Below are positions 1 through 14,410 of a DNA stretch of 14,410 bases, piece by piece (position 1 is the stretch's first letter; every line of letters starts with the position of its first letter). Origin of the DNA: Methanobacteriota archaeon (lineage in GTDB: Archaea; Thermoplasmatota; Poseidoniia; Poseidoniales; Thalassarchaeaceae). The notes under the pieces are model-generated. The model saw nothing but the letters and a program-made list of their open reading frames with translations. It searched no databases and had not been told where the DNA came from. The stretch lies in the NCBI GenBank assembly GCA_002720055.1, contig PBGH01000026.1, positions 1 through 14,410 of the forward strand, given 5' to 3'. The translations under genes and the position numbers were made by a program.

Positions 1-3000
1 CTGAGACGGACTGCTTGGAGGACGCAGGCGAGATCCACTTGGACATACAGGGTGAGGATGGAAGCTGGACCACCTACGAGTCCCATCAGTACTACGAGCT
101 GGTACCCGGGACCACGGAGCTATCGTGGAACCTAACGGGCATGCTCGAGGGATACGAGTACGAGCTCTACTGGTACCAGGGCGGCAGCGACTACAACTCG
201 CACTACGAGTACTTCACCGCCGACTCGACTGGAACCGCGAGCTTCGACTTCGACCTTACGATCGATGTTTACGAGTGCAACGTCTACTTCTACGCCTACC
301 TCAGGCCGATGTCCGAGTACACAGGCAACTACGAGCAGGTTGCAAGCTTCTCCTTCCACCCAGATGAGCCGTGCAAGCCTCCATTCGATCTGATGGCCCA
401 AGATGATGAGGGCAACTTCACCGTAGACGCCCTAGGGTTCTCCGGCGAGGACTTCTCACTGGGTGTCGGAACGACTGAGATGCTGTTCGACTTCAGCGGG
501 ATGGACAATGGCTCCTCCTACTACCTAGAGTGGTACTGGAGCACTGACAGCAGCTGGAACGGTTGGTACTACGACCAAATCGACGTGAACCACTCCAGCG
601 ATATTTCCGGACTATTGTGGAACATCACCATGGAGTCGATGGACTGCAACGCGCACATCTACGTCTCACTGCGAAATTACACCGACGGGATGAACAACCA
701 TATGGGCTCGTTCGACCTGAACATCGACGGCCCATGCCTGCTACCTATCGATCTGGAGTCAGATCACGACCAAGAGGTCTACACCGGAACGAACGAGATG
801 ACATGGGTGCTCGACAACCTAGACGTTGGAAGCAACTACACGCTGCAGTACTACTACTCGATGACGACTGGATGGTACGGATGGTTCTACCACGATTTCA
901 CCTTCAACGGTACGGAGAATGTCGACTTTTCCGTGAATGTCACCGACTGGGACTGCAACGTGAACGTCAACGCCGACATCTACAACGTCACTGATGGAAA
1001 TAACGATCGAGTCTACGGATTCTACGACAACTTCCACAACCCAGATTGCTACGAAGTCTGGATGGAACCAACGGATGACAACGGTGACTACATCGCATAT
1101 CAAGACATAGACTCGGGAGTCACCGAGCTTCTATGGCAGATCGGGTTCAACGAGGACGACTTACCCTCTGGACAAGAGTTCGAACTGGAGTGGTACTATC
1201 TGTTCGACTGGGACTGGAACAACCAGGTCGTGAACTCCTTCACATGGACTCATGGCGATGAGGAGACTATCGAGATCCCATGGAACGTGACAGCTAACGA
1301 CTTCCACTGCAACATCTACTCCCATGCCGACCTGCGGGTCAACTCCTCTGACGGATGGATAAACGTCAGATCATACGGGTTCTACCTTTACCCTCCTTGC
1401 GAGGAGATGCCCGGAGGATGGTACGAGCTCCAGATGGACCATGATGGAGGATGGGTGGACCTCAACGAGGGCTGGAACCACATGATCCACGAGGAGGGAG
1501 TCTACGAGATGAGGATCAACGCGACCGACCTAACCGAGGGAGTGGCCTACACGATGGAGATAGGCGCCTTCGCCTTCGGGCACGAGATCATGCGAGAGAT
1601 CGTATCAGGGAACGCGTCTAGCGAGAACGCAACCATGGACTTCACTATCGTAGTCCCACACTGGTTCTGCAACCTGGAGCTCGAGACGAGGCTGTCCTTC
1701 GAGCACGATGGCTCAGAATACGAAGTGATGAACAGACACTATCATGAAGAGGGACCATGCCAAAACGACGCAGGCGGCGACTTCTCAGACGAGTTCAACG
1801 TCGGTTGGGAACTAGAGAGGATGGATGACAGGGACTACAAGCTGTTGATTCCAATCTCATGGGAACTCAACGATCAGTTCTGGCTGTTCGCGGACATGCA
1901 GTGGGGAGACGGAAACGGCATCCTGAACGAGAGCGAGGCTGCAATGGTCTCGGAGGCATACAACGAGAGCCCCGACGATGAAGACGACATTGAACTACCT
2001 CCGTTCGAGTTGAACAGCCAACTCGCCGACTCGGGATCGTTGGAAATCTTGGGCATCTCTGATATCGGCACTGAGCCTGTGTTCCACGCGATTTGGGTTC
2101 TGGAGTTCCACGACGTCATTGGAGTGGACCTAGCGATGCAGGCTCCAATCGAGTTCGATGAGGACGAAGTCCCTTGGAACATGCACTTCGAAAGCAATTC
2201 GGAGATCCTGCTGGAGTCCGTGCACATCGAAGAGCAAGATGGGAGCACGACGAACTACACCGCGGATAACGGCACTGTGTCATTCCAGATGACGTACACG
2301 AACACCTCGATTGGAATGCTCATGCTGTTCACGCTGGCAGATGTGCCAAACCCAACACTAGTCATCGAGCAGTACGACATGGATTCAGGAGAGTATCTTG
2401 AGCCATCACCAACCGTCGGAGAGGGTTACTACGAGTTCCATGCTTCACTAGGCGATCTAGCGGACCAGGAATACACCCTAACAGTCAACTACATGATCTG
2501 GGATGACTCTTTCTACATGATTCAGACCATGTCAATTATTGACTCCGTCGATGCAGATCTTGCCGAGTGGCAGAGCAGCTTCGGCATGTACATCGACAGA
2601 TTCGCCTGCTATGTGGACATTAACGCCACCGTGGAGGACAGGAACGGAGACATAGTCAATGTGTCCCTAGTTTGGATGGATGGTCTCTGCGCCCAGCCAG
2701 AGATGAGCCTCGAGCAGCTCTACCCAGGCTACCAGAGCCCAGAATATGTCTGTCACGAGGTGGCAGGAGACCCAACAAGCCCAGTGCAGTACATCAACTT
2801 CAGCCTAGTGAATGATGGGAATCAGGACTGCGGCGACGGCTCTGACGAGCCGTTCGACATGGACCTCTCCACTGATACGGACGGAGACGGGAACTTCACC
2901 AACGACCACGATAGCTGGTTCGACTGCCATGACGGCGATGGTGTGAACATGGACGTGGTCAATGATGGGAACGCGGACTGCTCTGACGGCGAGGATGAGT

Positions 3001-4610
3001 ATAGCTACGTGATGTGGGAGTGGGGCGAACCTTCAGATGCCATCGGCTACTCCTACGGCATGTACGACTACTGGATCGACTTCCAAGCTGTGGCGAGCAA
3101 CCTGAGCTACATGAGAAATTGGTCGATCACGTACGAGTACTCATTCGATGGCGTTCTACAGAATTCTTCGGGGCAACCGACCTCGTACGACTGGTGGGAC
3201 AATGAAACCATCGCAGGATTCTACATACAATCTAACATCGAGGTATGCAACATCAATGTCACGGCTACTCTCTGGGAGCATGACTACAATGACCCATCAT
3301 CTGGTTCAGGAAGCTCGGATGAGGACGTCTGGATGGAGGCGATATCTGTCACCGCCGACCTTGTAGGAGAGTGCGTGCAGGATACGGACCTGGACGGTGT
3401 TCTGGATTGGTTCGACAAGTTCCCAGACGACTCCAGTGAGTGGAACGACACCGATGACGATGGCGTTGGTGACAACTCAGACGCCTTCCCAATGGATCCG
3501 ATGGACTGGAACGACTTCGACGGAGATGGCGTGGGTGACAACTCAGACGCCTTCCCATGGGACGCGAACGAGTCGGTTGACAGTGACGGAGATGGCTATG
3601 GCGACAACTCGGACGCCTTCCCGACGGATGCGTCGGAGTGGAGCGACTACGACTACGACGGAATCGGAGACAACGCAGATCCAGATGCCGACGGTGACGG
3701 TGTGGACGATGACTCGGACGACAGCGACGGAGACGGGGTTTCAGACGCGGACGATGCCTTCCCATTCGATCCGAGTGAGCAGTACGACTCAGACGGAGAC
3801 GGGGTAGGGGACAACTCAGACGCCTTCCCCGACGATGCGAACGAGACCACGGACACCGACGGAGACGGAATCGGGGACAACTCCGACCCAGACGTCGACG
3901 GAGACGGCGTGGACAACGGACTTGACGCCTTCCCACTTAACAGCGGGGAGTCCTCCGACTCAGACGGAGACGGCGTCGGAGACTCCGAGGACGCGTTCCC
4001 GAACAACCCCAACGAGCAATTGGACTCCGACGGAGACGGAATCGGCAACAATGCCGACACGGATGACGACAACGACGGAACCCTAGACGTCAACGACCCA
4101 TTCCCGACAGACCCATCGGAGGATGCAGATACCGATAGCGACGGCGTGGGAGACAACACCGACGTATTCGTGAACGACCCATCAGAGTGGTCCGACGCAG
4201 ATGGTGATCAGGTTGGCGACAACGCGGACAAGTTCCCTACCGACCCACGCGAGCAATTCGACTCCGACAATGATGGAGTGGGAGACAACACCGACGCTTT
4301 CGTCAACGATCCGACGGAGATTTCTGACTCCGACGGGGACGGAGTCGGCGACAATGCTGACGTCTTCCCACTCAACCCTGACGAGTCCAAGGATTCAGAC
4401 GGGGACGGAGTTGGTGATAACGAGGACGCCTTCCCTAACGACGAGACGGAACAGAGCGACTCCGATGGGGACGGAATCGGAGACAACGCCGATATCGAGG
4501 ATGCCGATGGAGGCGGAGGCGGAGGAATCCTACCAGGATTCGGTGCGTTCGCTGGCATTGCATCCATACTCGGTGCTGCGATACTGTTCGCAGGACGACG
4601 CAAGGACTGA
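1..4610 (+). CDS. Giant secreted/surface adhesin-like protein with TSP type 3 repeats and PGF-CTERM tail (5' partial)
   Basis: The reading frame is open at the left edge (codons run from base 3; the TTG at 15 is an internal Leu), so the true start and signal peptide lie outside; more than 1530 residues are visible. In order: five consecutive Tyr/Trp/Asp/Asn-rich modules of about 103-123 residues, each with a Cys-Asn strand motif and a closing Cys (12-1760); a different middle domain with an EF-hand-like loop (1761-2340); another two-Cys module (2341-2690); two LDL-receptor-A-like acidic motifs (2751-2999); a last two-Cys module (3000-3374); 19 thrombospondin type 3 calcium loops (3381-4508); a Gly6 linker; and a PGF-CTERM helix with an RRKD end. 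More than 25 N-glycosylation sequons are visible. By family knowledge it is exported, calcium-stiffened and processed by an archaeosortase; adhesion or S-layer association is inference. Tyr, Asp and Asn codons strongly favour C endings, unlike the large gene at 7935. The ligand is unknown. Confidence 0.9.
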   Translation, partial: ETDCLEDAGEIHLDIQGEDGSWTTYESHQYYELVPGTTELSWNLTGMLEGYEYELYWYQGGSDYNSHYEYFTADSTGTASFDFDLTIDVYECNVYFYAYLRPMSEYTGNYEQVASFSFHPDEPCKPPFDLMAQDDEGNFTVDALGFSGEDFSLGVGTTEMLFDFSGMDNGSSYYLEWYWSTDSSWNGWYYDQIDVNHSSDISGLLWNITMESMDCNAHIYVSLRNYTDGMNNHMGSFDLNIDGPCLLPIDLESDHDQEVYTGTNEMTWVLDNLDVGSNYTLQYYYSMTTGWYGWFYHDFTFNGTENVDFSVNVTDWDCNVNVNADIYNVTDGNNDRVYGFYDNFHNPDCYEVWMEPTDDNGDYIAYQDIDSGVTELLWQIGFNEDDLPSGQEFELEWYYLFDWDWNNQVVNSFTWTHGDEETIEIPWNVTANDFHCNIYSHADLRVNSSDGWINVRSYGFYLYPPCEEMPGGWYELQMDHDGGWVDLNEGWNHMIHEEGVYEMRINATDLTEGVAYTMEIGAFAFGHEIMREIVSGNASSENATMDFTIVVPHWFCNLELETRLSFEHDGSEYEVMNRHYHEEGPCQNDAGGDFSDEFNVGWELERMDDRDYKLLIPISWELNDQFWLFADMQWGDGNGILNESEAAMVSEAYNESPDDEDDIELPPFELNSQLADSGSLEILGISDIGTEPVFHAIWVLEFHDVIGVDLAMQAPIEFDEDEVPWNMHFESNSEILLESVHIEEQDGSTTNYTADNGTVSFQMTYTNTSIGMLMLFTLADVPNPTLVIEQYDMDSGEYLEPSPTVGEGYYEFHASLGDLADQEYTLTVNYMIWDDSFYMIQTMSIIDSVDADLAEWQSSFGMYIDRFACYVDINATVEDRNGDIVNVSLVWMDGLCAQPEMSLEQLYPGYQSPEYVCHEVAGDPTSPVQYINFSLVNDGNQDCGDGSDEPFDMDLSTDTDGDGNFTNDHDSWFDCHDGDGVNMDVVNDGNADCSDGEDEYSYVMWEWGEPSDAIGYSYGMYDYWIDFQAVASNLSYMRNWSITYEYSFDGVLQNSSGQPTSYDWWDNETIAGFYIQSNIEVCNINVTATLWEHDYNDPSSGSGSSDEDVWMEAISVTADLVGECVQDTDLDGVLDWFDKFPDDSSEWNDTDDDGVGDNSDAFPMDPMDWNDFDGDGVGDNSDAFPWDANESVDSDGDGYGDNSDAFPTDASEWSDYDYDGIGDNADPDADGDGVDDDSDDSDGDGVSDADDAFPFDPSEQYDSDGDGVGDNSDAFPDDANETTDTDGDGIGDNSDPDVDGDGVDNGLDAFPLNSGESSDSDGDGVGDSEDAFPNNPNEQLDSDGDGIGNNADTDDDNDGTLDVNDPFPTDPSEDADTDSDGVGDNTDVFVNDPSEWSDADGDQVGDNADKFPTDPREQFDSDNDGVGDNTDAFVNDPTEISDSDGDGVGDNADVFPLNPDESKDSDGDGVGDNEDAFPNDETEQSDSDGDGIGDNADIEDADGGGGGGILPGFGAFAGIASILGAAILFAGRRKD
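12..1760 (+). repeat. Array of aromatic-rich two-cysteine modules, probably beta-sandwiches
   Basis: Five tandem modules show the same landmarks: an early WxL/WxI-type strand, an aromatic stretch such as YELYWYQ, YYLEWYW, YTLQYYY or FELEWYY, a Cys-Asn followed by an alternating strand, then a closing Cys (PC or DC). The Cys codon pairs are 276/372, 645/735, 954/1047, 1308/1398 and 1668/1758; related pairs recur at 2607/2688 and 3246/3372. The Cys codon at 12-14 fits the closing Cys of one more module, so the array continues to the left of the window. Alternating hydrophobic residues suggest an Ig-like or similar beta-sandwich with one disulfide each. I do not recognise a named family. Confidence 0.75.
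1902..1937 (+). other. EF-hand-like loop in the middle domain of the adhesin
   Basis: The encoded WGDGNGILNESE keeps the acidic, Asn, Gly, hydrophobic and final Glu positions of an EF-hand loop (positions 3, 5, 6, 8 and 12) but has Trp at position 1. It sits in the domain between the two-Cys arrays. Calcium binding is plausible for a protein already full of calcium loops, but the loop is degenerate. Confidence 0.4.
2751..2999 (+). repeat. Tandem LDL-receptor class A-like acidic motifs
   Basis: Two copies of a Cys...VNDGNxDCxDGxDE pattern lie about 150 bp apart: the first ends in DCGDGSDE (2826-2849), the second in DCSDGEDE (2976-2999). Each has an upstream partner Cys (VCHE at 2751; a DCHDGDG stretch for the second). 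The DC-x-DG-S/E-DE signature matches the calcium-binding end of LDL-receptor class A repeats, but each unit has two cysteines rather than six. They probably form small calcium-binding knobs between the beta modules and the stalk. Confidence 0.6.
3381..4508 (+). repeat. Nineteen thrombospondin type 3 calcium-binding repeats (stalk)
   Basis: Nineteen units of the form DSDGDGVGDNxDAFP can be counted. Most are 22 residues (66 bp), and shorter 13-residue units occur where the AFP spacer is missing (for example the DYDYDG, DTDGDG and DSDGDGIGNN units). Regular Asp at alternating positions is the hallmark of thrombospondin type 3 loops, which bind calcium and form a stiff rod. The DNA is also repetitive: the 20-mer gacaactcagacgccttccc is identical at 3471-3490, 3537-3556 and 3810-3829. 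Unit number may therefore vary by recombination or be misassembled. Confidence 0.93.
4509..4607 (+). other. Glycine linker plus PGF-CTERM archaeosortase sorting signal
   Basis: After the last calcium loop come six glycines (4509-4526), then LPGFGAF, a hydrophobic helix of about 18 residues, and the basic end GRRKD. This is the tripartite PGF-CTERM layout (PGF motif, membrane helix, basic tail) known from archaeal S-layer and other surface proteins, where archaeosortase A removes the tail and the protein is attached to lipid. It indicates a cell-surface location. Confidence 0.85.
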
Positions 4611-4612
4611 GC

Positions 4613-4645
4613 GGGCCTCGCCTAAGTGCGAGGTCCCTCAGGACC
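4613..4645. terminator. Overlapping hairpins between convergent adhesin and priL stops
   Basis: Bases 4613-4621 pair with 4628-4636 (nine pairs including one G-U), with a 6-base loop that carries the priL stop. A second stem, ggtcc/ggacc (4632-4636 with 4641-4645, loop ctca), uses the same bases as the right arm of the first. No T-run follows, so this is not a classic T-tract archaeal terminator. Its position 3 bases after the adhesin stop suggests a role in ending both converging transcripts; function is inferred. Confidence 0.4.
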
Positions 4646-5806
4646 ATCCGCGACCCGCGGTTTAGCTTGCGAACTGCCTTCAGGACCAGGTTCCATGAAC
4701 CTCCTCCGCTGCTTAGCCCTGATGTACTTCAAAGGATGAGTCAACCACTCCCTGTCGCATAATTGGTCTTCACCTAGGCTTACAGGGCATCTAGCGTTAG
4801 TCTTCAGCGCAGCACAGCCATGAGGGGTGTACTCTCTCTCGAATATCTGGTTGACTTGGTACGCAGTAGTATCTGCGTCATAGTCAGGTGCGTTCGCGAA
4901 GAAGTTACACGTCTGCTCCCTGCTCAAACCGATAGACCTGGAGAATGCTGCAAGGAACACCCTTCCCACATGGTTAACGTTGACCCCTTGGTTTAACTCG
5001 GATGCGGCCGACTCGAAACAGGGCGGCCAGTCCTCCCTTATGGCAGCGCTCATTGGCATCTCTTCCTGAACCCTCTCGGAGAGCAGACCAGTAATCCTCT
5101 CAACCGAATCCGAGAATCTCGCTGCGAATTCGTCATCCATCCTCTCCATTCTCTCTTGACAGCTCTCTGTCAACGTCTCCCTAATCCTCTCCTTGATCAG
5201 CCTCGATGCTCTTTCTCTGCTCGTCTCGCCTGCTCCTGCGTCCATGCAAACCCAACCGTCCTTAACAGGCCTGTTTACCAATCTCCAGTACTTGCCTGAG
5301 ATTCTTGGGCAGAGCTCAATGAAATCCATCATGGGAATCCAATACTCCTCTGAACCATCCTCTCCTCTGCGAATATCCAGTCCTGACAATATCGAAGAGC
5401 AAATGACCTCGAAGTTCTGCGCATCCATGCCCAAGAGCCGATCAGCCCTGCCACACTCTCCTTCTATCCATCTTGAAAGAAGACGTTCATCGAAAGAAGC
5501 GCACACGACTAACATTGCATGCAGAAAAGAAAGGGCCTCGGTCATTCTACCTGCATCAGTGGAAATATCAATGTTCGTTGAAGAACTCACTCCATCTTCC
5601 TGAAGGACAGAGTCGATCAATCGAACTCTTCCTCTAACCCGAACATCCTCCAACCATGGAGCCTCAATCAGATCCTCCACTGATATTCCGTTTTCCTCAA
5701 GTAACTCCTTGATGTAAGCACTTCCTTGAGGAAGGAAAGGATAACGTGCCAGAAGTCCCGAGTCTTCAATTGCAGGCACTTTGAGTGGTATCGGCACGAA
5801 CATCAT
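4622..5806 (-). CDS. priL: Archaeal DNA primase large subunit PriL
   Basis: This is the iron-sulfur subunit that works with catalytic PriS to make primers for DNA replication; it acts in the cytoplasm on single-stranded DNA. Counting from the ATG at 5806 (394 residues), the N-terminal helical domain begins with the typical ARYPFLPQGSAYIKEL segment (about 20-35). The C-terminal Fe-S domain has WPPC (Cys263), the NHVGRVFLAAF helix, DYDADTTAYQVNQI, then HGC (Cys331), ARC (Cys340) and QLC (Cys350) followed by THPLKYI. The four cysteines fit the usual 4Fe-4S ligands. Residues after about 370 are a charged, probably disordered tail. The start is uncertain: a TTG at 5827 would add seven residues, but no well-spaced ribosome site supports either, and tandem ATG codons at 5806 and 5803 favour the shorter form. 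It converges on the adhesin with an 11-bp gap and diverges from the mptE-like gene. Confidence 0.92.
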   Translation of the reverse strand: MMFVPIPLKVPAIEDSGLLARYPFLPQGSAYIKELLEENGISVEDLIEAPWLEDVRVRGRVRLIDSVLQEDGVSSSTNIDISTDAGRMTEALSFLHAMLVVCASFDERLLSRWIEGECGRADRLLGMDAQNFEVICSSILSGLDIRRGEDGSEEYWIPMMDFIELCPRISGKYWRLVNRPVKDGWVCMDAGAGETSRERASRLIKERIRETLTESCQERMERMDDEFAARFSDSVERITGLLSERVQEEMPMSAAIREDWPPCFESAASELNQGVNVNHVGRVFLAAFSRSIGLSREQTCNFFANAPDYDADTTAYQVNQIFEREYTPHGCAALKTNARCPVSLGEDQLCDREWLTHPLKYIRAKQRRRFMEPGPEGSSQAKPRVADGPEGPRT

Positions 5807-5853
5807 TGGGCCGCGAGGGTTCTTCAATACTCACCGAGCCCTTCCACTGGAAC
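5807..5853. promoter_or_regulatory. Short divergent promoter interval priL / mptE
   Basis: Only 47 bp separate the preferred starts of priL and the mptE-like gene, and neither has a clear Shine-Dalgarno sequence, which suggests leaderless transcripts. The only AT-rich patch is ttcttcaatac (5821-5831), placed roughly 22-33 bp from the mptE ATG and 15-25 bp from the priL ATG. It is a weak TATA candidate that could serve either side. Confidence 0.3.
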
Positions 5854-6621
5854 ATGACACCATATGGATACCCCGCAGAACTGGAACCAGTAGATACCTC
5901 TCTGCTGAATCTCCAGGATGAGGTCAGGGATTACTTTGGATGGGGTGAGCTGAAAGACCTAGAAAGCGCGGAGGACTTGCTAAAAACAGTAGAGCAATCT
6001 AGCGTGAGAGTTTGGGAAAGACATTACAGGGGCGCCTCGATTTCAAACTTGTACCGGAGACTGGTGATCAGAGGCCCTTCGGTAGCGATACTCGGGGCAG
6101 CAATTGAACCAGAAGAATTGATCGATACCCTCGAATCTCCTACACTGCTCATAATCGCAGACGGTGCAGCAGGGGTGATTTCTGAGATACCAAAATCCCT
6201 CTCAGAGAAGGCATGGTCGCGCGTGGCATGCATGGTTAGTGACGCAGATGGTGGTGAGGGGACATACAAGGCGGCTCGACGATCGATACCGATAGTACTT
6301 CATGCTCATGGCGACAATCGTGAAGACTGGCTGGAATTGATCAAAGAATCCGGAAGTCAGAATGAACCTCCTGAACTGATTCTCACTCATCAGACAAGTA
6401 GCAGGATCCCCGGTATGCATAACCCCGGGGGGTTCACCGACGGCGATAGAGCTGCATGCTTCCTTGCTTCACTGGGAGTCAAAAATCACAACATCCGCTT
6501 ACTAGGAACCAACTCCCACTCAGTTGGAAGATGGTCAGGAGAAACTCACGAGCCAACAAAGCTGGAGAAACTAAAATGGATGGAGCAGTCACTACGGATT
6601 CTAGGTCTTTGGACAGACTAA
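5854..6621 (+). CDS. mptE: MptE-like 6-hydroxymethyl-7,8-dihydropterin pyrophosphokinase
   Basis: Archaeal MptE transfers pyrophosphate from ATP to 6-hydroxymethyl-7,8-dihydropterin, a step toward folate or methanopterin-type C1 carriers; it is a cytoplasmic Mg-dependent enzyme unrelated to bacterial FolK. In this 255-residue protein the family landmarks are IRGPSVAILG (72-81), IADGA (101-105), SDADGG (129-134, for the usual TDLDG), HAHGDN (150-155) and PGGFTDGDRA (191-200). The last two are the most diagnostic. Near the end, GTNSHSVGRWSG (218-229) takes the place of the usual GMDFG...GRYS segment. The ATG at 5854 was chosen because the upstream GTG at 5785 would run into priL. No ribosome site is visible. 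The stop overlaps the stop of the convergent YfaP-like gene by 4 bp. The general MptE/DUF115 assignment is secure; the exact pterin is not shown. Confidence 0.87.
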   Translation: MTPYGYPAELEPVDTSLLNLQDEVRDYFGWGELKDLESAEDLLKTVEQSSVRVWERHYRGASISNLYRRLVIRGPSVAILGAAIEPEELIDTLESPTLLIIADGAAGVISEIPKSLSEKAWSRVACMVSDADGGEGTYKAARRSIPIVLHAHGDNREDWLELIKESGSQNEPPELILTHQTSSRIPGMHNPGGFTDGDRAACFLASLGVKNHNIRLLGTNSHSVGRWSGETHEPTKLEKLKWMEQSLRILGLWTD

Positions 6622-7805
6622 ATCTCGAAGCTTCCAGCTTCAACACTGCTTCCATCTGAACTAGCTGTGCCAGTGAAGGACTTCTCTTCGCCCTTGTTAT
6701 TCAGAGTGATGCTGAATTCCACCTCACCATCATCACCATCTGTCTCAAACTGCCTGACTGAGATTTTGTAAGCTCCCTTGGGAGGGTCTGACGCCCAAAG
6801 TATCGACCTGACTCCTGACTTAGGGTCGAATCCTTCGATATCGAAAGAAGCTCCATCTAGCCCATCAGGACTGAAGAACGAGACTTCCTCGCCGTCAGTG
6901 TTCTGCACAGAGAGCCCTAGGTCAGCAATTCCATCCCAATTCAGAGTCACTGAAACTCCATCCTGGACAGTCCCGACTCTTCTCCTGAGGGCGTCGACCT
7001 CTCTAGCTTCTGAAAAGTCCTCCTGAACCTGCTGAACCTCCTGAACCTCCTCTCTAACCTCTTCCTGGGGTACCTCACCATCAGACCCGGCAATAGCGAA
7101 CTTAGCTACGAATTGCAGCTCATTACTCTTCTCAAGGGAACCTTCGTAGAAACGCTTTGAATCCCCAATGGTTATGCTGACTTTGAAATCAGTGGAATTC
7201 TTCCTGTGTATTCTAGATAGGAAGGGTACCCAAGAGAAGACTCCCTTTGTATGAATTTTGTAGTGCCTAACACCGACTCTGTAAACTCCTGGAGGCGGAG
7301 TTTTCGTCCAGACTATGTTTTCAACAGGAGTCTTTGAAGTAGGCTTGAAATTCATGTCTATGTCTAATTCTCCACCACAGCTAGAGTTCCTGTTGTCGTG
7401 GTAGACATGTTCTCCAGAGGGCGTTATTACATGTAGATCCAGGTCATTCCAGTTATCCCACAAAAGACTGATCTGAACAGAACCTCTCTTAGCGCCCTCT
7501 CTCTCCAGCCTTTGCTCCAGAGCCGACTCTTCTTCGGTGGAGACTTCCGCTTCTTGAACCCCTGCTCCAATCGCCTGAGAACCCTGTCCAAGAGAACCGG
7601 ATACTGTAGCGCTACCTGACCTATCCCTCCCAGACCTCCTAGACCTAGAACTTACAGAACCACCGTCTAAGAGCTCATTAGGGACATTTCTCCGTGTCGA
7701 GGGAAGGATAGTTCTTCTAGTTCCTGAACGAAAGATTCGAAACAAGCCACTCATCATTGCGACGAGGATGAGAACGATTACTACTATGGATACAGCGTCC
7801 GCCAC
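6618..7805 (-). CDS. Membrane-anchored protein with two YfaP/DUF2135-like domains
   Basis: The 395-residue protein starts with a GTG and an N-terminal membrane helix (about 4-22), followed by a basic, Ser/Arg-rich linker (23-105). Domain 1 (about 108-238) carries the YfaP/DUF2135 signature: LLWDNWNDLDLHV, SGEHVYHDN, GGELDIDMN, then PVENIVWTKTPPPGVYRVGV. A Glu/Gln/Val-rich segment (244-272, probably coiled coil) leads to a second, diverged copy (283-395): LNWDGIADLGLSV, FDIEGFDP, RSILWASDPPKGAYKISV. In copy 2 the acidic DLD and GG-LD-D positions are largely lost. Family function is unknown; the conserved acidic residues suggest metal or carbohydrate binding (inference). The two domains probably lie outside the membrane, but orientation is not determined. 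It diverges from the giant gene at 7935 across a 129-bp control region, so co-regulation is possible. Its stop overlaps that of mptE. Confidence 0.8.
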   Translation of the reverse strand: MADAVSIVVIVLILVAMMSGLFRIFRSGTRRTILPSTRRNVPNELLDGGSVSSRSRRSGRDRSGSATVSGSLGQGSQAIGAGVQEAEVSTEEESALEQRLEREGAKRGSVQISLLWDNWNDLDLHVITPSGEHVYHDNRNSSCGGELDIDMNFKPTSKTPVENIVWTKTPPPGVYRVGVRHYKIHTKGVFSWVPFLSRIHRKNSTDFKVSITIGDSKRFYEGSLEKSNELQFVAKFAIAGSDGEVPQEEVREEVQEVQQVQEDFSEAREVDALRRRVGTVQDGVSVTLNWDGIADLGLSVQNTDGEEVSFFSPDGLDGASFDIEGFDPKSGVRSILWASDPPKGAYKISVRQFETDGDDGEVEFSITLNNKGEEKSFTGTASSDGSSVEAGSFEI

Positions 7806-7866
7806 GTAACTGAACGTGAGCAGTGACTTTTCATTACATCGGTCACATTGAGGCCACGGCAGTTAC
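7806..7866. repeat. Inverted repeat GTAACTG...CAGTTAC in the divergent control region
   Basis: GTAACTG (7806-7812) and its exact complement CAGTTAC (7860-7866) flank 47 bp of the intergenic region. A direct repeat gccacg precedes each arm (7801-7806 and 7853-7858). One arm touches the start codon of the minus-strand gene; the other lies just upstream of the TATA candidate for the plus-strand gene. This placement would suit an operator acting on both genes. Seven bases can match by chance, so this is only a candidate. Confidence 0.3.
7828..7838 (-). promoter_or_regulatory. TATA-like box for the YfaP-like gene
   Basis: On the minus strand the sequence reads tgtaatgaaaa, located 23-33 bp upstream of the GTG start at 7805. 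That is the expected TATA distance for a leaderless archaeal transcript starting at the start codon. No Shine-Dalgarno sequence is visible before the GTG, which fits leaderless initiation. Confidence 0.4.
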
Positions 7867-7867
7867 A

Positions 7868-7879
7868 AAACCATTTATC
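7868..7879 (+). promoter_or_regulatory. TATA-like box for the giant envelope gene
   Basis: The stretch aaaccatttatc contains an A-rich BRE-like start and the TATA-like core atttatc (7873-7879). Transcription about 25 bp further on would start near 7900 and give a leader of about 35 bases holding the strong ribosome site at 7916-7926. A second AT-rich stretch, tttcataatcat (7888-7899), is an alternative. Confidence 0.35.
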
Positions 7880-7906
7880 GCCGGTTGTTTCATAATCATG
7901 GTTAGT

Positions 7907-7926
7907 CTCCTCTACGAGGAGGGGAG
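7907..7926 (+). promoter_or_regulatory. Shine-Dalgarno site partly hidden in a perfect hairpin
   Basis: The ribosome site gaggaggggag (7916-7926) lies 8 bases before the ATG at 7935 and decides that start. Its first six bases (gaggag, 7916-7921) are exactly complementary to ctcctc (7907-7912) with a 3-base loop, tac. Folding would hide half of the site while leaving ggggag free, which could modulate translation of the large downstream gene. Confidence 0.5.
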
Positions 7927-7934
7927 CGCAAGCA

Positions 7935-10900
7935 ATGGGAACATACGCCATCTCGGACCACTCTTCTGATAGAGGAAATGTTTCACGAATGGCGTGCAAG
8001 GTCACGGTTCTGACTGCGATCCTCCTCATAATGCCCCTTTTGGCAGGAGTCCCGACTTATCCCGTAGAAGAATCTCCGATGATGACCTCAGGAAAGTCAA
8101 CAGATGCGGATGTAGCCGTAACCGATCTCAATGTGACTACTCCCTCATCCATGGTGTCCGGAGTCCCCACTCTTGCTCCACAAAATCACATCATCAGAGT
8201 GGGCATTGTTAACATCGGGGGAGGAGTTGGCGAAGGCGACCTAATACTCAGAGTAGGAGGAGTAGATGTAGACTCCAGAGACATTTCAATTAACCCGGGG
8301 CAGCAGGAGGTCCATTTGTTACTCTGGGACGCAACTAACGTCAGTGGAGCACAGGCAACTGGATTGAACATTGTTGCATTATGGGATACAACTGGAACTG
8401 ACTCCGACTCTTCAAATGACCAGTCTACTCTAAGCAATGTGGAGGTTAACGCTGTAGAATCGGCTTCAGACATCGCCGACTCCCTACCAGGTGAGGGAGA
8501 CTCCCTTGCTAGAGCCCAATGGCAGGGAGCAATCACGGGAGTAAATACGGGCAACCAACCAGTCAACGTTACTGCCCAACTCACCCTAACTCCAGTTCTA
8601 GGAGGATCGCCCGTTTCAATTACATCAACGACAGAGCAGGCAGACCCGGGCAGCCTATCGAGCTCTCCAGAGCCGGTCAACGTATCCATTAGCTTCGATG
8701 GTTCGAATCTTGAAGGAGACTACACCTTGGGAGGGAGCCTCCTAGTTGTCGGAGAAACTCAGTCAGTTGTAAATATCCCATCGAGACTAGTCAACTTCGT
8801 TGCTCTGAGGGCTACCTTGATTCCTGCCAACAACCGCAACGTCGACCCCGGATCATCGACTATCCTAAACTTCATTCTACAGAATTCAGGAGATACCGAC
8901 ACATTCACAGTCACACAATCAAACACCTCAGCAGTAGATGAATGGTGGGCCAATGTCCCACAAGGTGATGGCGAAAATCTGTACACTCAGGCAGATCCTC
9001 TGACAGTTCTGGAAGATCAGACGCAATCCATCCAGGTTCCGATTGAGGTTCCCGACGATGCAGCCAACGGCGATGCCGTTGTCGTCACGATCTCTGTCCA
9101 GAGCATAGGGGCGGGTTATGTTCTTGAGGCCAATACAATTGTGATGGCAGGAGGTACCTACCAATCAGAGATTTTCCAGAATCACAGTTATATCCAACCC
9201 GGAACAGGACCAGGTACGGATCCCGCAGTTCCCGCAGTCTACCTAGAAGACTTCGCAAATATTACTCCCGGGACACCTAAAACCCTAGACTACACCCTGA
9301 GAAATACAGGAACTGCCCCAGCGCAATTTCAAATCAGTGTAGGGGCAACGGAGGCTGTTCCGTACTGGACAATATACTGCCCAATCACGATCACTGATGT
9401 TCTACTTCCGGACGAGAACAGAACGATTCCGGTCACAATAACCACCCCAGAGCTAGAAATGCCACTGAATCCTTCCTGGAAGGTGTCTTCAATCGAAGAA
9501 GTGGATATCATTATCCAAGCGATACCCATGGAAGGAGGGATACCATCCACAAATCAGACAACACTAGTCATCGACAGTGTGGTAGAACTAGACATCCAAA
9601 TCACCGGAAGCCCTAGTGATGTTTCAGTAGATGATGTATTGGGCGGGAATACGGACAGATATGTGCCATTTGAGGTAACCATAGTTCACAATCTGGGCTC
9701 TGATGATACGCTTGCACAGGTAAGCTTGGTCCCAACAGGCGGGGAAGCTGATGGGAAGACCTTCGAAGGCAACACCCCACAATCCGATGCTAGCACTTCA
9801 GAACACACCAGGTGGATCGCATCAATCGGCCCCGGGAATATGGAACTCGAACCAGGAGAGATAGGATACGGGTTCGTTGGCATATCATTCAACGCGAACG
9901 AAGACTTCCCATATCCGGCAGCGGGAACTTTCAGGTTCGATTTCATTGCGACATCGAACTGGGCGTCATTTACAGATACGATATCGAAAAACGCTACTGC
10001 AAACGTCACCTTCACTATCGAAGAGCTCTGGACTGCAGAACTAATCTCAGGGCCCGTGGTCACTGGGGATCCAGCCGTACCTATGTCTGCCCAAGTGACT
10101 CTGAAGAATACGGGTAACGATGTGGCAAACTACAGCGTCCATTTTATTGAAATCCCCTCATGGGACATCTCCTTAGCAAGCAAGCAAGTCAACATGCTCA
10201 AATCTCGAACCAACCTTTTCCCGAATGGTGTGGATAGAAATCCCGAAGGGGACATGTTCACCATAACCGTGAATATAGTACCTCCATCTACGGCCAGTGC
10301 TGACGGATATCATGAAATCTGGATTTATGTCAACGGTACAGATGATTTAGGTGAAGACATGGGAACCCTCGCATATGCTCCAGTCTTCGTCAACCTCACA
10401 AAAGTAATTTCTGCAGAAATATCTCCAACGAAATCTGTCGCTGTTATAGATAGCGGAGAAAGCAGAGTAGGCCAGAAAACCATAATCCTACAACTCAACA
10501 ATACAGGCAACTCAAACGTCACCTATGACCTCACACTAACGAATTACGACAGTACTAGAATACAGGTTTCATTCGCGGATGACGGTACAGAGACTTACGA
10601 AAAACAGCAGTCAGTCGCTCCAGGCGCACAAGCGATAGTCAGAATTTATGCTACTGCTGGATCTTCAGCTAGAGCGGATGAGGATAGCAGGTTCGATATG
10701 ACGGTCCAACACGACGGATTGGTTCTTGCGACGAGCGAGATAACTGTTCAGGTCGCTCCGGACCACGCCATCATATTCATCGCTCCATCCGCTATTCAGG
10801 TTGCTCCAGGGAATACTGTGGAAATCCCATACACATTGACGAATTTGGGTAATCTGGTGGAGACACTAAACCTGACTGCAGAGTTTCCCGAGGGGGTGGG

Positions 10901-13118
10901 GAACTGGAGCTATTCAGTAAACGACTCAAACTTCTCAATAGCACCCGAGGAGAGCTACTCGGTAATGCTAACAATTAATCTCCCGGGACTCAATGAGGGA
11001 GGCTCAATCCTTGAGGCATACATGAATCACTCAGTCATCGTCAGAGCTGTAAACATCACAGACCCTTTTCCCACTTGGCCAACTTCCATCACAGTAAACG
11101 GTACAAGCCAACCAGTTCCAGTCAATCAGAGAAAATCTCTCGGCGGGGGGGTTCCAGCCGGGACAAGTTTACTCACCGTTGAGATACTCCCTGTTTTCGA
11201 TGTACAACTGACTCAAGCTCCTGATCGTATTGCCCTCGTCCCGGGAGTAGATAGAGTGATCCAATACGAATTGGAGAACAAGGGAAATGCCATGATGGAC
11301 CTAACAATCTCGTGGGACACCATAGACAGCGATCCAATAGAGAACAGGTTCGGAGTAGAAGCTATAGTCAGCTCAACCAGCCTCTCCTTGGCAGTGGGTG
11401 AAACTACTTCCCTGACATTTAGATTCAGCACCCTAGGCGATGATCATTACAAGGATGAGCCCGGAACCTTCGTTCTGACTCGGACACCCATAGGAGTAGA
11501 CGTCGACGCACAACAGGATAGCACTCCAATAGTAGTGGTAAGAGCCCAAACTGACGACGAGATTCTACTTAATGCAGATACGCCAGGAATGTACCAATGC
11601 GTAAATAATGATGATGATAGATGCAGGGAAATCAGGATTCCTTGGGTAAACATCAACCCTTCTGGTAGCACCAATGCCGCTGAGAGAGCGTACTCCCTAG
11701 GCCTCAATGGCAAGATAGTTCCCCAATTAGGAGGGGGATTCCAGTATGATGCATCAACAGATTTCCCAGAGAGGCTAGTCGCCTCGACCGCATACAAGGA
11801 GACCCACTGGAGCCTGAGCATCGACCACGACACTGAAACAGGCGCGGGGCAGTGTGTCCTCCTCGATGATGAGGGAACGGGTCTACTTGCTACTGAGGAT
11901 ACCGTGGCAAACTGTAATTCCCAGTGGGACATGGCTCCCACTACGCCCTACGATTTGGAACCAGGTGGAACTCATGGAGGAACCATCGTTATCCAAGTTC
12001 AAATTCCTCTTAGCTCTACGCTTGCGGCAGGCGATGGATGGGATATTTACCTACAACTGAGGAATCCAGAGGAGGACGCAAGTACGGAGTTTTCTACTGA
12101 TTTAGTCGTAAAAATCAGGATGAGCCAGTCAACAAACCCACAAATCAACAATGTCGAGTTCAGGGGTGGTGGTGTAGAGGGGGACTCGACCTTCATCGAT
12201 GTGAACATCATCAATGCAGGAAACGCAGTAATGCCTTCCAACGTCGAAATCAGCCTGAATTGCCCTGCATCTCCATATTTCACTATCACAGGGATGTCCT
12301 CCAATAAAGCGGTACCCGCCCTTCCCGCAGCTGGTAATCACACCGTTTCTTGGCCAGTGAAACTCAATCCAATACCCTGGTACAGCTCCTCGGAGAAGGT
12401 TGAATGTACTGCGAGCATCATCATCCCAAGTGATGTTGTCCAGCAAGGAGGAATCTTCGGGAACGTCCTTTCTGATGACATTAAACAAGAAGACCTACCA
12501 ATCGCGTCTTGGTCGACTCCTTCAGTAGATCTAGCAGGCGTTGGAATCCCATCCGCAGCTCTCGCTTTCTTTGTGATATTCTTTGGCGCGCTGTCTCTAC
12601 TTAGACAAGGAATGGATGATGACCAAGACCGACTCCATGCATCGGCCTACGTAGCATCTATGGCTTTCGGCACCCTATCCCTCTCGGCAATCTCCACTAT
12701 TCTTACTATAATCTGCGCGCTAGGCGCGATCATCTTCGCAGGTCTTGTTGCTTGGCTATCATCCAGCGAGCTACAGGCAATTCACGATGACAGGAAGAAG
12801 TCACGTATTGGTACTCGTTCCCTTATTGAGGACCATGACAAGGAGCAAGCGAATACAAGAAATGAGCTGAGAGCTATTATTTCATGCGCTCCCATCGCAT
12901 TCCTGCCATTCGTGCTGATTACTCCAGAACTTGCTATAGATTTGGGAGCTATCTCACTAGTATCGGTAATCGCATTTATGGCCTTATCACCCGTTATGGT
13001 ACATCTAATTCTGAGATTCCTCGACAGCTCTTATGACCGTCTTTATCGAGATTTGGCCGATATAGAGCTAAGGGCAATCAGAATCAAGAAGATTCTCGGT
13101 AGCGCCGGGAAGAAATAA
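7935..13118 (+). CDS. Giant exported multi-module beta-sandwich protein with multi-pass C-terminal membrane domain
   Basis: The product has 1727 residues. A hydrophobic signal segment (about 22-40, KVTVLTAILLIMPLLAG) indicates export; the ATG at 7989 would give a shorter, more typical leader, but the ATG at 7935 has the better ribosome site. The ectodomain (about 55-1530) consists of about eleven modules of 100-190 residues starting near residues 57, 190, 286, 406, 549, 697, 824, 944, 1088, 1205 and 1401. Several share the pattern LxNTGN... followed by LxPG and VxIxxP strands, as in CARDB/NEW3-type Ig-like domains. Module 10 carries four cysteines, including CVNNDDDRC. Membrane helices lie near 1537-1557, 1571-1590, 1589-1609, 1648-1666 and 1668-1694, with a polar loop at 1610-1646 and a charged cytoplasmic tail at 1697-1727. 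N-glycosylation sequons are frequent. Function is unknown; a cell-envelope scaffold or secretion/adhesion platform is inference. The next gene follows after 19 bp. Confidence 0.85.
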   Translation: MGTYAISDHSSDRGNVSRMACKVTVLTAILLIMPLLAGVPTYPVEESPMMTSGKSTDADVAVTDLNVTTPSSMVSGVPTLAPQNHIIRVGIVNIGGGVGEGDLILRVGGVDVDSRDISINPGQQEVHLLLWDATNVSGAQATGLNIVALWDTTGTDSDSSNDQSTLSNVEVNAVESASDIADSLPGEGDSLARAQWQGAITGVNTGNQPVNVTAQLTLTPVLGGSPVSITSTTEQADPGSLSSSPEPVNVSISFDGSNLEGDYTLGGSLLVVGETQSVVNIPSRLVNFVALRATLIPANNRNVDPGSSTILNFILQNSGDTDTFTVTQSNTSAVDEWWANVPQGDGENLYTQADPLTVLEDQTQSIQVPIEVPDDAANGDAVVVTISVQSIGAGYVLEANTIVMAGGTYQSEIFQNHSYIQPGTGPGTDPAVPAVYLEDFANITPGTPKTLDYTLRNTGTAPAQFQISVGATEAVPYWTIYCPITITDVLLPDENRTIPVTITTPELEMPLNPSWKVSSIEEVDIIIQAIPMEGGIPSTNQTTLVIDSVVELDIQITGSPSDVSVDDVLGGNTDRYVPFEVTIVHNLGSDDTLAQVSLVPTGGEADGKTFEGNTPQSDASTSEHTRWIASIGPGNMELEPGEIGYGFVGISFNANEDFPYPAAGTFRFDFIATSNWASFTDTISKNATANVTFTIEELWTAELISGPVVTGDPAVPMSAQVTLKNTGNDVANYSVHFIEIPSWDISLASKQVNMLKSRTNLFPNGVDRNPEGDMFTITVNIVPPSTASADGYHEIWIYVNGTDDLGEDMGTLAYAPVFVNLTKVISAEISPTKSVAVIDSGESRVGQKTIILQLNNTGNSNVTYDLTLTNYDSTRIQVSFADDGTETYEKQQSVAPGAQAIVRIYATAGSSARADEDSRFDMTVQHDGLVLATSEITVQVAPDHAIIFIAPSAIQVAPGNTVEIPYTLTNLGNLVETLNLTAEFPEGVGNWSYSVNDSNFSIAPEESYSVMLTINLPGLNEGGSILEAYMNHSVIVRAVNITDPFPTWPTSITVNGTSQPVPVNQRKSLGGGVPAGTSLLTVEILPVFDVQLTQAPDRIALVPGVDRVIQYELENKGNAMMDLTISWDTIDSDPIENRFGVEAIVSSTSLSLAVGETTSLTFRFSTLGDDHYKDEPGTFVLTRTPIGVDVDAQQDSTPIVVVRAQTDDEILLNADTPGMYQCVNNDDDRCREIRIPWVNINPSGSTNAAERAYSLGLNGKIVPQLGGGFQYDASTDFPERLVASTAYKETHWSLSIDHDTETGAGQCVLLDDEGTGLLATEDTVANCNSQWDMAPTTPYDLEPGGTHGGTIVIQVQIPLSSTLAAGDGWDIYLQLRNPEEDASTEFSTDLVVKIRMSQSTNPQINNVEFRGGGVEGDSTFIDVNIINAGNAVMPSNVEISLNCPASPYFTITGMSSNKAVPALPAAGNHTVSWPVKLNPIPWYSSSEKVECTASIIIPSDVVQQGGIFGNVLSDDIKQEDLPIASWSTPSVDLAGVGIPSAALAFFVIFFGALSLLRQGMDDDQDRLHASAYVASMAFGTLSLSAISTILTIICALGAIIFAGLVAWLSSSELQAIHDDRKKSRIGTRSLIEDHDKEQANTRNELRAIISCAPIAFLPFVLITPELAIDLGAISLVSVIAFMALSPVMVHLILRFLDSSYDRLYRDLADIELRAIRIKKILGSAGKK

Positions 13119-13123
13119 GAATA

Positions 13124-13130
13124 GGGAGGG
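13124..13130 (+). promoter_or_regulatory. Ribosome binding site fixing a TTG start
   Basis: GGGAGGG sits 7 bases before the TTG at 13138. The next in-frame ATG codon is far inside the helical region, so this site supports the rare TTG as the true start. It also shows that the gene is translated from within a longer transcript rather than as a leaderless message. Confidence 0.65.
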
Positions 13131-13137
13131 AAATAGA

Positions 13138-14181
13138 TTGGCAAAGAAACAAGCAGCCGCAGTCGGAGGCGCTGAGGCCACTCTGAAGAGGATAGACTTC
13201 ATCGAGGAAGAGGCTGAAAACATTCAGTTCGCAATCTGGGCGAACAGGCCGATAAGTGCCAATCGGAAACTAAAGAGCCTTTCTAGGGAACTAGATGAAG
13301 CCGAAGGACAAATCATGGATCTCTACAGAGCCCTATCCTCACTGGAGAGGTCTCTTGAAGAGCTTGAGGAGATGTCAGAAGGGGATCGTAATGCATGGGA
13401 CATTACCATGCTCGGACTCCAACACCTCAGAGAAGGAAACTGGGGCGCTGCCGCAGATTGTGTGGAGGGCGCAGTAGCATCAATGGGGAAAGAAGGCCTA
13501 GAGAGATCTCTGGGGACGCTAGGAAGGCATCTGAATGAGATGGGCGAACTAAGCGATATCGAGGAGATTGCACTGACACTAGTCAATCAAGGTAAGAATG
13601 CTTTAGATTCGGATTTAGCATCTGCCGCGAAGGCATTCGAGGATGCGATAAAGGCTCTCGGACCAGTCGCAGTCACGGAGGCAACAAGTCCCTTCCTTGT
13701 AAACAACTTTTTCTTGTCAGTAGGAACCACATGGCCCGAGGGAAATGACCACGGTCTGATGGTAATCACACTTGAGAATCTGGGGGAAAACAACATTTCT
13801 ACAATGAGGCTAGCACCCCCTATACCCTATGGGTGGTCAGCAACTCCCAAGATGTGCGAGATACCCGAAATCCCACCAGAGGGTTTCATAGAGATCGGAG
13901 TAGAGATCAGACCTTCCGGATCTTTCCCTCAGACTTCTCTTTTGGGAACCAGACTGAATGTCACCACCGGCTATCTTGCTGATTACGGGAACCTCAAGGT
14001 CCAGACTAGAATCGAGAACAGAACCCCTGCAACTATGGAGGGGGTCTTGGTCGACCCTTGGATGCCAGACGGCTTTGAGACCCTCCGACTACCACTTGTT
14101 GAGAATATAGGGCCCGGAGCGGTTGTCCACGTTCCTGTAGAGGTGCTCAATCTCCAGGAAGCTATGGGTATCGGAAGCTAG
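13138..14181 (+). CDS. Cytoplasmic helical/coiled-coil protein with C-terminal beta-sandwich domains
   Basis: I do not recognise a named family. The 347-residue protein has no signal peptide or membrane helix. Residues about 13-80 form a charged heptad-like helical region (LKSLSRELDEAEGQI, LSSLERSLEELEEM), probably a coiled coil. Residues 85-178 form helical pairs of tetratricopeptide-like character (HLREGNWGAAADCVEGAV, DLASAAKAFEDAIKALG). Residues 179-347 look like one or two beta-sandwich domains with the LENLGENNISTM pattern that recalls the Ig-like modules of the upstream giant protein. It follows that gene by 19 bp and very likely shares its transcript, so it may bind the giant protein's cytoplasmic tail (inference). 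Archaellin starts 87 bp downstream with its own promoter-like box. The start is the TTG supported by GGGAGGG. Confidence 0.78.
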   Translation: MAKKQAAAVGGAEATLKRIDFIEEEAENIQFAIWANRPISANRKLKSLSRELDEAEGQIMDLYRALSSLERSLEELEEMSEGDRNAWDITMLGLQHLREGNWGAAADCVEGAVASMGKEGLERSLGTLGRHLNEMGELSDIEEIALTLVNQGKNALDSDLASAAKAFEDAIKALGPVAVTEATSPFLVNNFFLSVGTTWPEGNDHGLMVITLENLGENNISTMRLAPPIPYGWSATPKMCEIPEIPPEGFIEIGVEIRPSGSFPQTSLLGTRLNVTTGYLADYGNLKVQTRIENRTPATMEGVLVDPWMPDGFETLRLPLVENIGPGAVVHVPVEVLNLQEAMGIGS

Positions 14182-14268
14182 ATTTATGCTCCTGTACCGA
14201 AAAACACCTAAATTCTCCATTAATATGATAAGTGATTAGTTTACCACATGGGTTTACAGGTGGACGCC
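14182..14268 (+). promoter_or_regulatory. Archaellin promoter and ribosome binding site
   Basis: This AT-rich gap contains attaatatgataa (14218-14230), a good TATA candidate. About 25 bp downstream the transcript would begin near 14250, leaving a short leader with AGGTGG (14258-14263), a ribosome site 5 bases before the ATG at 14269. No T-run terminator for the upstream gene is visible, so read-through from 13138-14181 is possible. Confidence 0.5.
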
Positions 14269-14410
14269 ATGAGCGAAGATTACCAACTAGCACAGAGAGA
14301 AAGAGAAGAAGGTTCGATAGGTATCGGAGCGATGATTGTTTTCATCGCCCTAATCCTTGTGGCCGCGGTCGCGTCGACGATAATCATCACGACCGCTGAG
14401 GAGCTACAAC
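14269..14410 (+). CDS. Archaellin (FlaB/ArlB-type) N-terminus, 3' partial
   Basis: Archaellins are the filament subunits of the archaellum; their class III signal is cut by the prepilin-type peptidase FlaK/ArlK, and the hydrophobic N-terminal helix packs in the filament core. Here residues 16-36 read SIGIGAMIVFIALILVAAVAS, matching the well-conserved archaellin start GIGTLIVFIAMVLVAAVAA, and cleavage is expected after Gly15. The leader REREEG is acidic just before the cut, where archaellins usually have Lys/Arg. The gene runs off the right edge after 47 codons. The ATG at 14269 was chosen because of its AGGTGG site; an in-frame ATG at 14248 would add seven residues and give an unusually long leader. 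Other archaellum genes would be expected to the right. Confidence 0.85.
   Translation, partial: MSEDYQLAQREREEGSIGIGAMIVFIALILVAAVASTIIITTAEELQ

What the first reader, a model, noticed from the sequence alone, without database searches (positions are those of the whole stretch)
7935..14410. Candidate undescribed envelope or archaellum-associated system: giant ectodomain protein, cytosolic partner, archaellin
A 1727-residue exported protein has about eleven beta-sandwich modules, four or five C-terminal membrane helices and a charged cytoplasmic tail. A cytosolic coiled-coil/helical-repeat/beta-sandwich protein follows 19 bp later, and archaellin 87 bp after that. The layout spans outside, membrane and inside, as expected for an anchor, stator-like or secretion scaffold. 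The module pattern NxGN recurs in the cytosolic gene. None of the known archaellum components (FlaC-J or ArlC-J) has this architecture. A link to the archaellum rests only on neighbourhood.
Basis: partly seen in the sequence, partly recalled or inferred. Interest (0 to 1): 0.7.

Follow-up and report, generated by a model that had tools for sequence, protein, structure and literature searches.

The report
Two-gene head of ocean archaellum operon
In the genomes checked of Poseidoniales, a common group of marine archaea, the genes for a rotating tail (archaellum) come with two extra, uncharacterised genes at the head of the same cluster - a giant membrane-anchored surface protein and a partner inside the cell - which may hold the motor in place, though that role is untested.

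Summary
In detail: a 1727-aa exported membrane protein ("giant"), a 347-aa cytosolic protein 19 bp later ("cyto"), and an archaellin start 87 bp further, where the window ends. Relatives show that giant-cyto heads an archaellum locus (archaellin, ArlCDE-position gene, F, G, H, I, J) in Poseidoniales. Of 193 sampled genomes of the order, 114 have giant, cyto and ArlH, 67 have none, and in the 12 partial ones the contigs end in or beside the operon. Where cyto and ArlH share a contig (83 genomes), ArlH is always downstream on the same strand, 2.4-3.9 kb away. The pair also precedes archaellin in some other Thermoplasmatota, but other archaellum loci of that phylum lack it, and in a few genomes it lies apart. 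The giant's best conserved parts are a cytoplasmic helical hairpin and the C-terminal tail. The mechanism is inferred: most likely an envelope anchor or stator scaffold with a cytosolic clamp. Two S-layer families searched in 26 genomes were absent. Conserved unannotated genes in this operon were noted in print in 2019; my searches found no description of this pair.

The parts
7935..13118 (+). giant: exported ectodomain protein with five predicted C-terminal membrane helices, 1727 aa
   Evidence: ORF; hydropathy; AlphaFold2 of residues 528-1727; relatives in 123 of 193 order genomes after dropping 12 with weak matches only
7980..8036 (+). N-terminal hydrophobic segment of the giant (residues 16-34), signal peptide or anchor
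   Evidence: hydropathy; an N-terminal segment is seen in the other rows of A4 too
8052..12539 (+). ectodomain of tandem Ig-like beta-sandwich modules (about residues 40-1535)
   Evidence: Pfam PF23619 and PF11614 over cut-off; about nine modules in residues 528-1535 of the model by my reading; residues 1-527 not modelled
12552..12758 (+). membrane helices 1-3 (residues 1540-1561, 1564-1584, 1588-1608)
   Evidence: model; helices 1 and 3 also by hydropathy
12759..12884 (+). cytoplasmic helical hairpin between membrane helices 3 and 4 (residues 1609-1650); E1612, D1619, H1634 invariant in 25 rows; 1601-1650 is the best conserved 50-residue block
12867..13013 (+). membrane helices 4 and 5 (about residues 1645-1663 and 1672-1693)
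13014..13115 (+). C-terminal cytoplasmic tail, helix continuous with membrane helix 5 (residues 1694-1727)
13138..14181 (+). cyto: cytosolic protein, 347 aa, helical repeats plus two beta-sandwiches
   Evidence: AlphaFold2 model; relatives in 118 of 193 order genomes
13171..13659 (+). cyto helical region (residues 12-174)
13705..14151 (+). cyto beta-sandwiches 1 and 2 (residues 190-259 and 273-338)
14269..14409 (+). archaellin (ArlB) start, first 47 residues; cut by the window end
   Evidence: PF01917 E=1e-7; in L001 the archaellin is 201 aa and is followed by an arl operon

Best explanation
The two genes are dedicated accessory components of the archaellum of Poseidoniales and some related Thermoplasmatota (well supported). 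Most likely they form a transmembrane scaffold that holds the motor. Outside, the giant's chain of beta-sandwiches stands around the filament base and gives the ArlF/ArlG stator something to brace against, doing the job an S-layer does in other archaea. In the membrane it is held by five helices. Inside, its conserved hairpin and tail dock the cyto protein, which in turn contacts the cytosolic ring (ArlCDE/ArlH) or a polar platform. Shown: gene order, co-occurrence, where conservation lies. Predicted: architecture and topology. Inferred: that the two proteins bind each other, that they touch Arl proteins, that they carry torque or position the motor, and that they stand in for an S-layer.
For: Synteny: in 15 of 15 loci of close relatives the giant lies directly before cyto (in L007 the giant is split over two frames); archaellin follows in 13 (the other 2 contigs end inside cyto) and the run to ArlJ and a prepilin-peptidase-like gene is complete in the 9 that are long enough. 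In 20 longer loci that I picked from the 117 genomes matched, 20 of 20 have giant-cyto and 19 have archaellin next and H-I-J (L065 ends after cyto). Co-occurrence in 193 order genomes: giant 123, cyto 118, ArlH 120, all three 114, none 67 (for the giant, 12 genomes with only weak matches were dropped from 135); in the 12 partial genomes, all read, contigs end in or beside the operon. In the 83 genomes where cyto and ArlH share a contig they are on one strand in 83, 2410-3925 bp apart. Giant and cyto frames, taken from the first possible start, overlap by 4-26 bp in 16 of 17 loci measured and abut in one, which suggests coupled translation; the window has a 19 bp gap. Conservation follows compartment: in the eight near loci L002, L003, L005, L006 and L008-L011 cyto is 82-86% identical to the window's, like ArlH to L001's (80-85%), whereas giant (55-62%), ArlF and ArlG (47-57%) and full-length ArlB copies (36-47%) change faster; cyto of L013 and L014 is 73% and 70%. 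The giant's best conserved blocks face the cytoplasm in the five-helix topology. Giant length is steady, 1569-1775 aa over 25 rows, unlike what I would expect of a free adhesin. No match to S_layer_C or PF07752 in 26 genomes each (14 Poseidoniales, 9 other pair-bearing, 3 pair-less), one control ringing in each search. Gaines et al. 2025 (PMC12448462; abstract, outline, section 23 and passages seen) pose the question of how ArlF/G can act as stators without an S-layer.
Against: No interaction, localisation or phenotype data. Thermoplasmatales swim without an S-layer, and the Oxyplasma operon as listed in PMC12448462 (arlB, C, D, F-J) holds no such pair; the pair-less loci with room upstream that I read (L099, L100, L106, L107) have no giant membrane protein before archaellin, so the pair is not the general answer to a missing S-layer. 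Absence of two S-layer families does not show absence of an S-layer. In G217 and G206 the pair lies apart from arl. Rinke et al. 2018 (PMC6461757, passages) favour adhesion as the role of these archaella. The charge-complementarity test between giant tail and cyto was not general. No known fold or family points to a stator.
Confidence: 0.42

Rival explanations
1. Adhesion module: the giant is a surface adhesin co-expressed with archaella and used with them for particle attachment; cyto anchors it or signals contact.
For: Tandem Ig-like ectodomain and membrane anchor; faster-changing ectodomain; Rinke et al. 2018 argue for flagella-based adhesion and report no identifiable chemotaxis genes.
Against: Steady length, strict position at the head of arl and joint absence with it; an adhesin needs neither the conserved cytoplasmic hairpin nor a partner conserved like ArlH.
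Confidence: 0.2
2. Sensory input or switch: the giant senses the outside and cyto passes the signal to ArlCDE/ArlH in cells without CheF.
For: CheF-arch (PF04283) was found in 0 of 14 Poseidoniales genomes searched, with three controls ringing; cyto is conserved like cytosolic motor parts; published lack of chemotaxis genes in MGII.
Against: CheF is also missing from most of the other phylum genomes searched, with or without the pair (over the cut-off in 2 of 44 in all: G248 with the pair, G405 without), so the pair is not specifically where CheF is missing; no ligand-binding or signalling family was found.
Confidence: 0.17
3. Assembly, export or positioning factor: the pair helps insert or cap archaellins, or places the archaellum at one pole, without carrying torque.
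For: Gene position immediately before archaellin; helical-repeat cyto resembles scaffold proteins in general shape only.
Against: No catalytic family; the ectodomain is very large for a chaperone; no direct evidence.
Confidence: 0.13
4. Passenger genes: the pair belongs to another envelope function and merely travels with arl.
For: In G217 and G206 the pair lies apart from arl, near coiled-coil genes; some archaellum loci of the phylum lack it.
Against: The tight joint distribution in 193 genomes with no exception left after reading the 12 partial ones, frame overlaps, and order kept over deep divergence (giant 21-26% identical in the far clade).
Confidence: 0.08

Closest known systems
ArlF/ArlG archaellum stator with S-layer (Sulfolobus model; PMC12448462 and PMC13319060, passages)
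   Same: Operon-encoded envelope-side parts; beta-sandwich; proposed to stop the motor turning in the membrane.
   Different: ArlF/G are small pilin-like proteins; the giant is 1569-1775 aa with five predicted membrane helices. Poseidoniales carry an ArlG-like gene and an F-position gene in addition.
ArlCDE cytosolic ring/switch
   Same: Cytosolic, helical, encoded in the same operon; cyto and the CDE-position gene diverge to a similar degree in the far clade.
   Different: No PF05377 or PF04659 match in cyto; a separate gene sits at the CDE position, which matches those families in the two loci scanned outside the order but not in L001 or L053.
ArlX of Thermoproteota
   Same: Lineage-specific archaellum part in the arl locus (paper passages and recall).
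   Different: ArlX is described as a membrane-linked ring protein; cyto has no membrane helix. No sequence comparison was made.
Conserved unannotated genes of the MGII motility operon (Tully et al. 2019, PMC6336850, section 11 and passages)
   Same: Same order, same operon; unannotated orthologues were seen to be syntenic.
   Different: In the text read no architecture, partner relation, extent beyond MGII or function is given; Fig. 4 itself is not held, so I cannot say whether the giant is drawn in it.

Membership tests
archaellum (arl) operon component | encoded within or next to the arl locus on the same strand | tested here: met
   in the order: (83 of 83 genomes with cyto and ArlH on one contig; 31 more have them on different contigs); outside the order archaellin is adjacent in 7 of 13 contexts read, 2 end at contig ends, 4 are not adjacent
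archaellum (arl) operon component | occurs with ArlH and is absent with it | tested here: met
   193 order genomes: all three 114, none 67, 12 partial with contigs ending in or beside the operon; not tallied for the whole phylum
archaellum (arl) operon component | needed for archaellation or motility | not testable with these tools
   needs genetics; no cultured host with the pair is known to me
ArlF/ArlG stator | pilin-like protein matching PF01917 or NCBIfam ArlF/ArlG | tested here: not met
   no such match for giant or cyto
ArlCDE | FlaC_arch (PF05377) and Arch_fla_DE (PF04659) domains | tested here: not met
   cyto has neither; the genes at the CDE position in L086 and L098 have both
S-layer protein | match to a known archaeal S-layer family | tested here: not met
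   giant has no S-layer match in Pfam or NCBIfam; known families only
Ig-like repeat surface proteins (FixG_C, VWA7-Ig, CARDB/NEW3 type) | tandem Ig-like modules of these Pfam families | tested here: met
   PF11614 and PF23619 over cut-off in the window's giant; CARDB PF07705 and NEW3 PF10633 not in the window's giant but listed for relatives

The most novel reading that the evidence does not exclude
An archaellum variant with its own operon-encoded, S-layer-independent stator mount: a giant five-helix membrane protein whose ectodomain forms a collar for ArlF/ArlG and whose cytoplasmic hairpin and tail hold a helical/beta-sandwich clamp on the motor ring, spanning outside, membrane and inside.
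Probability: 0.3. Interest if true: 0.85.

Novelty: new variant of a known kind. Interest (0 to 1): 0.62.

Why it matters
Poseidoniales are among the most abundant archaea of the surface ocean and lack cultured members (abstracts of PMC6461757 and PMC6336850); whether their archaella serve swimming or sticking is open in print. How an archaellum motor is braced where no S-layer exists is a question raised in 2025-2026 papers (PMC12448462, PMC13319060). A conserved two-gene module at the head of the operon gives that question two proteins, with conserved cytoplasmic residues to mutate and an ectodomain to look for in tomograms. It also gives a practical marker: a giant-cyto pair flags an archaellum locus in Poseidoniales, where the genes at the C/D/E and F positions escaped the family libraries used here.

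Full report
What is in the window. The giant (7935-13118), cyto (13138-14181) and the start of an archaellin (14269 on) are present with the gaps stated. The window's own genome is not held. The closest relative, L001 (giant 93%, cyto 96% identical), is a MAG titled Euryarchaeota archaeon TMED173; the other 14 loci bear Marine Group II, Poseidoniales, Thalassarchaeaceae or Euryarchaeota titles.

What follows the window end. In L001 the archaellin is followed by a 274-aa gene at the ArlCDE position, an F-position gene, an ArlG-like gene, ArlH, ArlI, ArlJ and a prepilin-peptidase-like gene. Support: PF01917 for archaellin and the G gene, PF06745 for H, PF00437 for I, PF00482 for J, a weak PF06847 for the peptidase (below its cut-off); NCBIfam ArlH E=3.1e-46 and ArlG E=4.9e-18, both below their cut-offs. 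The CDE and F genes have no family match and are named by place.

Conservation of the neighbourhood. In 15 loci of near relatives giant-cyto is found in 15 (split over two frames in L007); archaellin follows in 13, the other two contigs ending inside cyto; 9 run through to the peptidase gene. There the giant is 21-38% identical to the window's and cyto (19 of the 20 aligned) 22-58%. In 17 of these loci the giant and cyto frames, from the first possible start, overlap by 4-26 bp in 16 and abut in one.

Co-occurrence. The same 193 genomes, drawn evenly from the order and with no completeness told, were searched with ArlH (E<=1e-30: 120 genomes), cyto (E<=1e-5: 118) and the giant (E<=1e-20: 135, of which 12 had only weak matches and were dropped, leaving 123). 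All three: 114; none: 67; partial: 12; all 118 cyto genomes have the giant. Cyto against ArlH alone: 114 both, 6 ArlH only, 4 cyto only, 69 neither; Fisher p=7e-40, a figure that ignores shared ancestry. I read contigs for all 12 partial genomes and mapped ten of them. The six ArlH-only contigs end upstream of ArlH inside the operon (at F, near the CDE position, or in archaellin); three of these genomes hold a giant on another contig that it runs off (G020, G147, G149) and three show none in the assembly (G028, G042, G059). The four cyto-only contigs end inside the operon or, in G172, 46 bp after cyto. In G127 and G186 the giant itself runs off the contig. Of the 114 genomes with both genes, 83 have cyto and ArlH on one contig: all same strand, ArlH 2410-3925 bp downstream. 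Of the 31 with different contigs I read five (G004, G011, G013, G181, and the cyto side of G168): the contigs end in the operon; the other 26 were not examined for this. So no exception was found among the genomes examined.

Beyond the order. In 292 genomes drawn from the phylum, a profile of four distant cyto relatives (A5) finds 14 genomes at E<=1e-30, four of them by construction; these four were first met through A3 matches of E about 1e-4 to 1e-3. A3 and A5 align with probability 96.8, E=2.1e-10, over 236 columns. I read 13 of these 14 contexts (not G260). The giant lies directly before cyto in 10 (in G270 broken over three frames), the contig starts at cyto in one (G245), and two (G205, G216), whose cyto matches cover mainly the sandwich part, have no convincing giant. 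Archaellin follows directly in 7; 2 end at contig ends; 4 are not adjacent to arl (G217, G206, G205, G216). ArlH is found in 13 of the 14; the exception, G227, has giant-cyto-archaellin-CDE and then a run of N. Five genomes have weaker cyto matches (1e-21 to 1e-13: G210, G237, G232, G266, G224); in the three contexts read (G237, G232, G224) neither giant nor arl genes lie beside. Archaellum loci L099, L100, L106 and L107 have neither gene and no giant membrane protein upstream; L101 is too short to tell. Trees of ArlJ (22 rows) and ArlI (26 rows) need 1 and 2 changes for the pair-adjacent label (shuffled means 5.3 and 5.4), with several long branches, so a single origin is suggested, not shown.

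Anatomy and topology. The model from A7 shows about nine sandwiches in residues 528-1535 (my reading), five membrane helices, a helical hairpin between helices 3 and 4, and a tail helix continuous with helix 5. With an exported ectodomain, five crossings put hairpin and tail inside. In 25 rows the block 1601-1650 and the tail 1701-1727 are the best conserved stretches; E1612, D1619 and H1634 are invariant, among other invariant positions spread over the protein. Cyto has six helices and two sandwiches.

How it most likely works. The pair spans outside, membrane and inside; in near relatives its outer part changes almost at the pace of ArlF/G and its inner part at the pace of ArlH, and in far ones cyto changes about like the CDE gene. 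I therefore favour an envelope mount: ectodomains around the filament base, cyto clamping the motor ring. Contacts, stoichiometry and torque are inferred. Two S-layer families are absent from 26 genomes each with one control ringing in each search, which fits but does not prove an S-layer-free envelope. Gaines et al. 2025 (PMC12448462) ask how ArlG/ArlF act as stators without an S-layer and suggest an unordered protein shell; their Oxyplasma operon as listed contains no such pair, so the module would be one lineage's answer.

Literature. Tully et al. 2019 (PMC6336850, section 11 and passages) report the MGII motility operon with several orthologous proteins lacking annotations and mostly conserved structure. 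Rinke et al. [quoted passage not shown] PMC6864105 (passages; Orellana et al. by recall) notes flaB/H/I/J and no known chemotaxis components. PMC9287336 (passages; Sheridan et al. by recall) cites divergent Poseidoniales motility loci. PMC12488501 and PMC13319060 (passages) treat Chloroflexota archaella. My ten paper searches listed no paper that, from titles, abstract starts and the passages read, describes this pair; subscription papers and figures are not held, so prior description is not excluded.

Verdict. Real, conserved and archaellum-linked: high confidence (about 0.95). Anchor/stator mechanism: moderate (0.42). Closest class: a new variant of the archaellum system.

Noticed in passing
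window 3-4610 (+): Large surface-type protein (open at the window start) with LDL-receptor class A repeats (PF00057, over cut-off), a below-cut-off thrombospondin type 3 match (PF02412) and a C-terminal LPGFG stretch plus hydrophobic helix and RRKD end, resembling an archaeosortase sorting signal (motif recalled).
   Followed up: no
window 4622-5827 (-): DNA primase large subunit (PF04104, E=1.3e-14) lies between the surface-protein genes.
   Followed up: no
window 6618-7805 (-): 395-aa protein with an N-terminal hydrophobic stretch and two similar W...DL.L.V-type domains; only a below-cut-off PF04151 match.
   Followed up: no
L091 (G206) 5145-6747 (-) and L088 (G217) 6013-11183 (+): Where the pair lies apart from arl, several coiled-coil genes with similar starts (such as MIKVISEDDK) lie downstream of cyto in the same direction; function unknown.
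   Followed up: partly
weak matches, e.g. G100:C8:39081-40103, G081:C14:14600-15700: A second Ig-repeat protein of about 900 aa, present also in Poseidoniales genomes without ArlH.
   Followed up: no
L051-L060, L064, L065 giant C-termini: In the large-genome clade the giant tail is 73-133 aa and acidic (net -8 to -37), unlike the short basic tail (34 aa, +4) of the window's giant; cyto there carries 43-99 aa N-terminal extensions, acidic in all but L060.
   Followed up: partly
P0046: A distant cyto relative carries a precomputed PF05763 match.
   Followed up: no
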